From Desulfobacteraceae bacterium (GTDB lineage: Bacteria; Desulfobacterota; Desulfobacteria; Desulfobacterales; Desulfosalsimonadaceae): a stretch of 64,000 nt of DNA. Every line of letters starts with the position of its first letter. Position 1 is the stretch's first letter. The notes beneath the pieces were generated by a model, which was given only the letters and a program-made list of their open reading frames with translations, had not been told where the DNA came from and searched no databases. The position numbers and the translations under genes were made by a program. Location: contig JAABSH010000013.1 of the NCBI GenBank assembly GCA_011390465.1, forward strand, positions 1 through 64,000, written 5' to 3'. This document shows positions 40,301-42,213 of the stretch, piece after piece.

Positions 40301-40428
40301 TTTGTTTCCTCTTTCCAAAAAAGCACTTGACAAAAAATTAAGTTCTATTTATTTCATTAAAATCTGTAAATCACAATAAAAGATAACAGAAATAATTTAC
40401 CCTAAAATAAAAAATAACAATTGAACAA
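40301..40428. promoter_or_regulatory. cinA/trp divergent promoter region
   Basis: A+T-rich. On the + strand a perfect -35 box TTGACA sits at 40327-40332; 17 bp later TATTTC (40350-40355) is a fair -10. This would start the trp transcript near 40362 and give a leader of about 300 nt before trpE. Confidence 0.5.
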
Positions 40429-40506
40429 ATGACGACTCGAAAAAAAATCAACACACATAACTGGTGGTGGTGGCAGGCGCACATAAGGAAGCTTGCTCAC
40501 GGGTAG
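40429..40506 (+). CDS. trpL: trp leader peptide with four consecutive Trp codons
   Basis: A 25-codon frame, ATG to TAG, whose codons 12-15 are TGG TGG TGG TGG (40462-40473), preceded by MTTRKKINTHN. Runs of Trp codons at mid-peptide just before a terminator and trpE are the hallmark of ribosome-mediated attenuation. The peptide itself needs no function; stalling at the Trp codons when charged tRNA-Trp is scarce is the signal. Ribosome-binding site is weak. Confidence 0.92.
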   Translation: MTTRKKINTHNWWWWQAHIRKLAHG

Positions 40507-40545
40507 ACGGGTATATACAAACATAAAACCATAAAAACCATCAGG

Positions 40546-40577
40546 ACCGCGGGAAGCTTCACCTCCGCGGTTTTTTT
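40546..40577 (+). terminator. trp attenuator terminator
   Basis: Stem ACCGCGG / CCGCGGT (40546-40552 with 40565-40571), loop containing GAAGCTTC, followed directly by seven T. The loop word AAGCTTC (40554-40560) is complementary to GAAGCTT in the leader frame (40488-40494), just downstream of the Trp codons. A ribosome stalled on the Trp codons would leave that segment free to pair and disrupt the terminator; one reaching the stop codon would cover it. Confidence 0.85.
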
Positions 40578-40585
40578 ATCTCAAA

Positions 40586-40620
40586 AAAAGACCGCGGAAA
40601 ATTCCTTCGGTCTTTTTTTT
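40586..40620 (+). terminator. Second hairpin with T-run in the trp leader
   Basis: AAAGACCG pairs with CGGTCTTT, followed by a T-run, 15 bp after the attenuator and 48 bp before trpE. It contains a third copy of the self-complementary word CCGCGG (40592-40597), which could pair with either copy in the attenuator stem. Confidence 0.6.
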
Positions 40621-40668
40621 TGCGGTAAAAATCGTCTTATACCGTCATTATATACACAAGGAGAAAAA

Positions 40669-42213
40669 ATGTACTTACAGCAATTCCCAACCCCGGAAAC
40701 CTTTGCCCGGCTTTTTGACGAGCACAATGTGGTTCCCCTGTGCCGGGAAATACTGGCGGATATGGATACACCGGTGACGGTGCTCAAAAAAATCTATTCC
40801 TCAGCCAGCCCCGCGTTTTTGTTTGAAAGTGTGGAAGGCGGAGAGCGCTGGGGCCGGTACAGCTTTTTAAGCGTTTCCGCCCGCACCCATGTCCGGATTT
40901 TTACTTCTCATGTGGAAATCACCAAAAACGGTCATCAGGAAAAAATTGCCCACCACAATGATCCGTTTTCCATTTTGCGGGAATTCATGAAGCGTTACCA
41001 GCCGGCGGTAATGACCGATCTGCCCCGGTTCTGGGGCGGCCTGGTGGGGTATCTTACCTATGAGACGATCTCGTTTTTTGAAAAAATTCCAAACCGCCTG
41101 CCCGCGGACCGGCCCCTGGCCCATTTTATCATGCCCGATGAAATGCTGATATTTGACAACATCCGCAACACCCTCATGATGGTGGCCATTGCCTTTAAAA
41201 AAGATCATGCGGATGCGGATGCGGCGTTTTCCGCACTGACGGACAAAATTCAGCGGCTGGAGGCCAAAATATCCCGGAGCCTCCCGAATGAAACAGACGA
41301 ACGGGATAAGACGAATGAAACGAAAAACACGGAAATACCCGATCAATCTTTTGCGCTATCGCCTTTGGTGAATGAAACGGATTTCCGCGCCACCGTGGAA
41401 ACCATTAAATCCGCCATCACCGCCGGCGAAGTAATTCAAACCGTTATTTCCCAGCCGTTTGTGTGTGATGCCCCAAAGGATCTGATCGCCCTTTACCGGG
41501 CCCAGCGATACATTAATCCGTCTCCGTATCTTTTTTTCATGCACCTGGATCACACCATTCTGGTGGGATCTTCGCCGGAAACCATGGTGCGCCTTGAAAA
41601 CGGGGTGGCCACTCTCCGGCCCATTGCCGGCACCCGGCCCCGGGGGAAAACGGAACAGGCGGACCGGGCCCTGGCGGATGAGCTGCTGGCGGATGAAAAG
41701 GAACGGGCCGAACATCTCATGCTGGTGGATCTGGGCAGAAACGACCTGGGCCGGGTGGCGGAAACCGGAACCGTGCAGGTAACGGATTTGATGACCATTG
41801 AGCGATACTCTCACGTCATGCACATGGTGTCCAACATCAAATGTGATTTAAAACCGGAATATGACGCATGGGATCTCATGGCTGCGGGATTTCCTGCGGG
41901 CACCCTTTCCGGAGCCCCCAAAGTGCGGGCCATGGAGATTATCGCGGACCTGGAAAAATATCCCCGGGGCCCCTATGGGGGCGCGGTGGGCTATATTTCA
42001 TTCACCGGAAACATGGATCTGGCCATTACCATCCGCACCGCCTGCATTGAAAACGGGCAACTGACGGTAAATGCCGGGGCCGGCATTGTGTTTGATTCCG
42101 ATCCGGAAACAGAACGGCAGGAGACGGTTAACAAGGCCATGGCCATCCAAAAGGCCCTTGAGCTCCTGGCACCGGCATCGCAAAAAAATTTATCGGGAGA
42201 TCATAAAAAATGA
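40669..42213 (+). CDS. trpE: Anthranilate synthase component I
   Basis: 514 residues. The N-terminal tryptophan-feedback site motif appears as FLFESVEGGERWGRYS (equivalent of LLES). The C-terminal chorismate-binding domain has GSSPETMV, PIAGTRPRGKTEQAD and DLGRNDLGRV. With TrpG it makes anthranilate from chorismate and glutamine. AAGGAG precedes the ATG. Overlaps trpG by 4 bp. Expression should be set by the attenuator upstream. Confidence 0.97.
   Translation: MYLQQFPTPETFARLFDEHNVVPLCREILADMDTPVTVLKKIYSSASPAFLFESVEGGERWGRYSFLSVSARTHVRIFTSHVEITKNGHQEKIAHHNDPFSILREFMKRYQPAVMTDLPRFWGGLVGYLTYETISFFEKIPNRLPADRPLAHFIMPDEMLIFDNIRNTLMMVAIAFKKDHADADAAFSALTDKIQRLEAKISRSLPNETDERDKTNETKNTEIPDQSFALSPLVNETDFRATVETIKSAITAGEVIQTVISQPFVCDAPKDLIALYRAQRYINPSPYLFFMHLDHTILVGSSPETMVRLENGVATLRPIAGTRPRGKTEQADRALADELLADEKERAEHLMLVDLGRNDLGRVAETGTVQVTDLMTIERYSHVMHMVSNIKCDLKPEYDAWDLMAAGFPAGTLSGAPKVRAMEIIADLEKYPRGPYGGAVGYISFTGNMDLAITIRTACIENGQLTVNAGAGIVFDSDPETERQETVNKAMAIQKALELLAPASQKNLSGDHKK

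What the first reader, a model, noticed from the sequence alone, without database searches (positions are those of the whole stretch)
40429..40577. Ribosome-mediated trp attenuator with four consecutive Trp codons
A 25-codon leader frame has TGG x4, then a CCGCGG-stem terminator with a T-run. The loop word AAGCTTC is complementary to GAAGCTT lying 14 nt after the Trp codons, so stalling on Trp codons would expose the leader word and break the terminator, while read-through to the TAG would hide it. This is a compact design with the anti-terminator partner inside the leader frame, different from the E. coli 1:2/2:3/3:4 layout.
Basis: partly seen in the sequence, partly recalled or inferred. Interest (0 to 1): 0.6.

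Follow-up and report, generated by a model that had tools for sequence, protein, structure and literature searches.

The report
Two-terminator relay tryptophan attenuator
Ahead of this bacterium's tryptophan-making genes sits a classic ribosome-sensing off-switch, but it has two stop signals in a row, and the RNA appears to be built so that one ribosome decision at the first stop signal is passed on, like a domino, to the second.

Summary
A 25-codon leader with four Trp codons (40429-40506) and an intrinsic terminator, T1 (40545-40577), precedes trpEGDCFB. Most trpE upstream regions from the same order keep this layout. It is supported in 54 relatives. A 1:2 hairpin is also supported, so the classic 1:2/2:3/3:4 scheme is present. 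Only the position of strand 2, inside the leader frame, departs from E. coli.

In 67 of 78 trpE upstream regions T1 and T2 occur in tandem. The 3' arm of T1 (strand 4) is complementary to the 5' arm of T2 (strand 5): 97.6% standard pairs with covariation equal to the hairpins themselves. The mirror-image control (3:6) gives 79.8% and little covariation. I propose a six-strand relay: a ribosome stalled on Trp codons gives 2:3, which frees strand 4 for 4:5, so both terminators are lost together. The architecture recurs across the phylum, also with Phe/Tyr leaders. This is inferred from sequence only. A 2010 survey I could not read may be prior art.

The parts
40429..40506 (+). Leader peptide ORF, 25 codons plus TAG
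   Evidence: WW-run leader ORFs conserved in relatives
40462..40473 (+). Four consecutive Trp codons (stall site)
   Evidence: runs of 2-5 Trp codons in relatives
40471..40478 (+). Strand 1 (last Trp codon and following codons), pairs with 40491-40499
   Evidence: MFE fold; 1:2 duplexes own -20.6 vs swapped -18.45 kcal/mol, 0 of 5000 permutations
40488..40503 (+). Strand 2, 5' arm of the antiterminator, inside the leader frame
40545..40561 (+). Strand 3 (T1 5' arm plus loop), 3' arm of the antiterminator
40545..40577 (+). Terminator T1 (hairpin 40545-40572 and U-tract)
40564..40577 (+). Strand 4 (T1 3' arm plus U-tract)
40585..40598 (+). Strand 5 (A-tract plus T2 5' arm); pairs with strand 4 as a 14-bp relay hairpin
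   Evidence: fold -19.7 kcal/mol for 40564-40600; 4:5 conservation and covariation
40583..40621 (+).
   Evidence: tandem T1+T2 in 67 of 78 trpE upstream regions
40669..42213 (+). trpE, first gene of trpEGDCFB
   Evidence: PF00425 and PF04715; best NCBIfam match TIGR00564 trpE, just under its cut-off

Best explanation
A ribosome-mediated tryptophan attenuator of the trpEGDCFB operon with two terminators in series, wired as a six-strand relay. With Trp plentiful the ribosome runs to the stop codon and covers strand 2, or leaves and lets 1:2 form. Then 3:4 (T1) terminates, and polymerases that leak past T1 leave strand 4 locked in T1, so 5:6 (T2) terminates them. With Trp scarce the ribosome stalls on TGG x4, strand 2 is free and captures strand 3 (2:3). 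Strand 4 is released and captures strand 5 (4:5) before strand 6 is made, so neither terminator forms and trpE is transcribed. Shown by sequence and comparison: the leader ORF, both hairpins with U-tracts, and conservation with co-variation or co-adaptation of 1:2, 2:3, 3:4, 4:5 and 5:6. Inferred: ribosome stalling, actual termination at T1 and T2, and the timing of 4:5.
For: Leader Trp codons and T1 conserved. 2:3 own -21.2 vs swapped -17.95 kcal/mol, 0 of 5000. 1:2 supported. Window folding: stalled, T1 pairs 0.13-0.31 and T2 0.03-0.06; ribosome at stop, T1 0.94. Tandem T1+T2 in 67 of 78 upstream regions; 4:5 duplex beats the mirror control 3:6 in 63 of 67. 4:5 has 97.6% standard pairs and covariation 0.381 (0 of 500 shuffles), against 96.0% and 0.385 for the two hairpins and 79.8% and 0.198 for 3:6. 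4:5 beats 3:6 in 28 of 30 and 15 of 15 further loci, many outside the class or with Phe/Tyr leaders. Upstream cinA is divergent, so T2 is not its terminator.
Against: No expression or termination data. In 55 of 64 trp leaders T2 (5:6) is more stable than the 4:5 hairpin, so the relay must act before strand 6 is made. In most relatives equilibrium folding with a masked ribosome keeps T1. In the window, equilibrium at T2 favours 4:5 even with the ribosome at the stop codon, which would weaken T2 as a backstop if T1 unfolds. No clear Shine-Dalgarno before the window's leader ATG. Covariation counts are not corrected for phylogeny.
Confidence: 0.72

Rival explanations
1. An ordinary classic attenuator in which only T1 is regulated. 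T2 is a weak or non-terminating hairpin (pause, RNA-stability element or relic of a terminator duplication), and 4:5 complementarity is a by-product of T1 and T2 sharing ancestry.
For: T1 and T2 stems are alike (CCGUGG in both), and two-terminator leaders need no relay if T2 is weak.
Against: A duplication would make 3:6 as complementary as 4:5; it is not. T2 keeps a stable stem and a U-tract across families.
Confidence: 0.17
2. T1 and T2 are two separately controlled terminators, T2 answering to an unknown protein or factor that binds the conserved CCGUGG stem, with ribosome stalling acting on T1 only.
For: The stem motif is strongly conserved over the phylum, more than pairing within one hairpin demands.
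Against: No protein site was identified, and the conservation is accounted for by overlapping pairings that each strand must satisfy.
Confidence: 0.07
3. The ORF is not translated and the element is a Trp-independent terminator pair.
For: No evident Shine-Dalgarno at 40416-40428.
Against: Trp-codon runs are conserved next to 2:3-competent RNA before trpE, and Phe/Tyr-rich leaders occupy the same place before ADH synthase and DAHP synthase genes.
Confidence: 0.04

Closest known systems
E. coli trp operon attenuator (trpL; Rfam RF00513 Trp_leader)
   Same: Leader peptide with Trp codons and alternative 1:2, 2:3 and 3:4 helices before trpE (E. coli side from general knowledge).
   Different: Strand 2 lies inside the leader frame instead of after the stop codon, and a second terminator with a 4:5 relay follows. 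The Rfam model scores 14.1 bits against a gathering score of 41.
Actinobacterial trp attenuators (Corynebacterium, Streptomyces; PMC1262725)
   Same: Leader peptides with double or triple UGG codons, antiterminator and terminator before trp operons.
   Different: The passages read describe antiterminator and terminator hairpins only; no second terminator or relay is mentioned.
rimP-leader with tandem terminators in some Gammaproteobacteria (PMC2965389)
   Same: Two terminators in tandem in a 5' leader, the upstream one with a potential antiterminator.
   Different: No leader peptide, and no pairing between the two terminators is described.
Attenuation with 'chains of RNA helices' (Lopatovskaya, Seliverstov and Lyubetsky 2010, as cited in PMC4833913)
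   Same: The citing paper says the importance of chains of RNA helices in attenuation was outlined there.
   Different: The paper is not held. Whether it covers this lineage or tandem terminators is unknown to me.

Membership tests
Classic ribosome-mediated (leader-peptide) attenuator | Short leader ORF with a run of codons for the pathway's amino acid | tested here: met
   TGG x4 before trpE; conserved in relatives
Classic ribosome-mediated (leader-peptide) attenuator | Intrinsic terminator between leader ORF and first gene | tested here: met
   T1 hairpin and U-tract, conserved and covarying
Classic ribosome-mediated (leader-peptide) attenuator | Antiterminator 2:3 excluding 3:4, with strand 2 exposed by stalling and covered at the stop codon | tested here: met
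   (computational)
Classic ribosome-mediated (leader-peptide) attenuator | 1:2 hairpin | tested here: met
   (computational)
Classic ribosome-mediated (leader-peptide) attenuator | Leader ORF has a ribosome-binding site | tested here: inconclusive
   No clear Shine-Dalgarno in the window; relatives on average better than background
Classic ribosome-mediated (leader-peptide) attenuator | Termination falls on Trp starvation | not testable with these tools
   Needs Term-seq or a reporter
Rfam RF00513 Trp_leader | Match to the covariance model at gathering score | tested here: not met
   14.1 bits against 41; no Rfam match at gathering
Relay (six-strand) attenuator, proposed here | Conserved, covarying 4:5 pairing beyond the 3:6 control | tested here: met
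Relay (six-strand) attenuator, proposed here | 4:5 actually forms in time to abolish T2 when 2:3 forms | not testable with these tools
   Needs single-round in vitro transcription or structure probing; equilibrium folding favours it in the window but not in most relatives

The most novel reading that the evidence does not exclude
A previously unnamed class of attenuator, common in this phylum (apparently Desulfobacterota) and shared by Trp and Phe/Tyr operons, in which one ribosome decision is relayed through a six-strand RNA domino to two successive intrinsic terminators. It could multiply repression while still allowing full derepression.
Probability: 0.65. Interest if true: 0.7.

Novelty: new variant of a known kind. 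Interest (0 to 1): 0.55.

Why it matters
In textbook attenuation one ribosome controls one terminator. A relay would let the same decision control two terminators in series, so leakage would multiply down while derepression stays complete, and it gives a testable design rule for stacking terminators. Matches at E 0.001 or better occur in 136 of 147 sampled genomes of the class and 84 of 148 of the phylum. Those examined control several aromatic amino-acid operons, so this may be a main control of aromatic amino-acid synthesis in the phylum, and no Rfam family matched it here.

Tried and rejected
The sigma-70 promoter scan found nothing, and the simple terminator scan missed both hairpins because the T1 and T2 loops exceed its 8-nt limit. 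Equilibrium folding of relatives with a masked ribosome mostly kept T1; I judged it the wrong test for a co-transcriptional switch and used pairing conservation with swap, shuffle and mirror (3:6) controls instead. A duplication by-product was rejected by the 3:6 control. Terminator of the upstream gene was rejected because cinA is divergent. Paper searches for tandem terminators in leader-peptide attenuators returned nothing on point.

Full report
WHAT IS THERE. The window carries trpE (40669-42213), trpG, trpD, trpC, trpF and trpB in order, with cinA divergent upstream. The leader ORF 40429-40506 encodes MTTRKKINTHNWWWWQAHIRKLAHG. The T1 hairpin spans 40545-40572 with a U-tract to 40577. The stated coordinates, the 14-nt spacing and the AAGCTTC/GAAGCTT match are correct. 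A second hairpin with a U-tract, T2, lies at 40583-40621, 49 nt before trpE.

CLASSIC PART. By duplex prediction the antiterminator is GAAGCTT.CTC.CGG (40488-40502) with CCG.GGGAAGCTTC (40547-40561), 13 pairs that take up both the T1 5' arm and its loop. Modelled on the window's RNA, a ribosome stalled on the first or last Trp codon leaves T1 at 0.13-0.31 of its pairs; a ribosome at the stop codon gives T1 at 0.94. Over 54 relatives with a defined leader, own 2:3 duplexes average -21.2 kcal/mol against -17.95 (sd 0.39) when partners are swapped between genomes, 0 of 5000 permutations reaching it, and mean z is -3.0 against shuffles. Strand 2 generally starts 9-20 nt after the Trp run and in most leaders ends before the stop codon. 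A 1:2 helix is also supported (own -20.6, swapped -18.45, 0 of 5000), so the layout is the classic one with strand 2 shifted into the reading frame.

SECOND TERMINATOR. Of 78 distinct trpE upstream regions, 67 gave two consecutive hairpins with T-tracts. Of the 67, a few pairs (L034, L045, L049) are weak or doubtful and were left out of the later counts. A T2 that always worked would defeat attenuation, so something must release it. The obvious candidate is strand 4 (T1 3' arm plus U-tract) pairing with strand 5 (A-tract plus T2 5' arm). In the window this is a 14-bp hairpin, 40564-40577 with 40585-40598 (-18.9 kcal/mol for the hairpin, against -16.2 for T2). It can act only on T2, because strand 5 is made after polymerase has passed T1.

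TEST OF THE RELAY. If T2 were merely a copy of T1, strands 3 and 6 would be as complementary as 4 and 5. They are not: mean duplex -17.8 for 4:5 against -12.2 for 3:6, 4:5 better in 63 of 67. On anchored 10-nt strands of 50 distinct leaders, 4:5 has 97.6% standard pairs, 6 pairs with changes on both sides and covariation 0.381 (0 of 500 shuffles). The two hairpins have 96.0% and 0.385; 3:6 has 79.8% and 0.198, its number of pair types reached by all shuffles. At one position strand 4 is almost always U, strand 5 G or A, and strand 6 C or U: strand 5 pairs with both, by wobble with strand 4. Swapping partners between genomes weakens 4:5 (0 of 5000). The strands were anchored by best match to a consensus, which favours the consensus pairs, so the informative part is the varying positions. 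These tests ignore phylogeny, but 3:6 shares the same tree, anchoring and composition.

SPREAD. A covariance model of T1+T2 finds a second site in this genome, G000:C41:19661-19740 (E 5e-13). There a Phe/Tyr leader MKNITGRFFYFWYFNYFYFYTKGLPVGS precedes 2-amino-3,7-dideoxy-D-threo-hept-6-ulosonate synthase. It matches 136 of 147 sampled genomes of the class and 84 of 148 of the phylum. Genes after it include trpE, ADH synthase, DAHP synthases, trpD, an ilvB-like gene and others, with Trp- or Phe/Tyr-rich leaders; some of these names rest on short N-terminal pieces. In these loci 4:5 again beats 3:6: 28 of 30 and 15 of 15. The model was built from trp leaders of the order and can favour similar stems, but it contains only the 3:4 and 5:6 pairs, not 4:5.

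LIMITS. There are no expression data. In only 9 of 64 trp leaders is the 4:5 hairpin more stable than 5:6, so the relay needs 4:5 to form before strand 6 is made, as classic attenuation needs 2:3 before strand 4. The window's leader ATG has no evident Shine-Dalgarno. In the window, equilibrium at T2 with the ribosome at the stop codon also prefers 4:5, so T2 as a backstop depends on T1 not unfolding.

NOVELTY. What it works like: E. coli trp attenuation, with a relay added. Membership: it meets the computational features of a classic attenuator and fails the Rfam Trp_leader model (14.1 vs 41 bits). No Rfam family matched 12 relay loci at gathering. The nearest published tandem arrangement read here is the rimP leader, without a leader peptide or a relay described. 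One paper says a 2010 survey outlined 'chains of RNA helices' in attenuation; it is not held, so priority is open.

Noticed in passing
L091 / L161 (G000:C41:19661-19740, minus strand): Second tandem-terminator leader in the same genome, with a Phe/Tyr-rich leader peptide before 2-amino-3,7-dideoxy-D-threo-hept-6-ulosonate synthase (archaeal-type route to aromatics).
   Followed up: partly
L162-L167, L171, L172, L174, L176, L177, L180, L181: Phe/Tyr-rich leaders, many ending in GLPxxR, precede tandem terminators before ADH synthase or DAHP synthase; the GLP codons supply strand 2 (GGTCTGCC) complementary to the T1 loop.
   Followed up: partly
L178 (G050:C92:2391-2467): Phe-rich leader (RFFYFCFFRFFSGFYF) and tandem hairpins before a gene whose N-terminus looks like phenylacetate-CoA ligase (no Pfam match on the 80-aa piece).
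   Followed up: no
L138 (G194:C13:96139-96217): Tandem hairpins before an acetolactate-synthase-like gene (TPP_enzyme_N); the leader peptide was not identified.
   Followed up: no
L130, L139, L173: Trp-run leaders with tandem hairpins before DAHP-synthase-type genes.
   Followed up: partly
40416-40429: The leader start codon lacks a recognisable Shine-Dalgarno in an A-rich stretch, while trpE has AAGGAG; how the leader is initiated is unexplained.
   Followed up: partly
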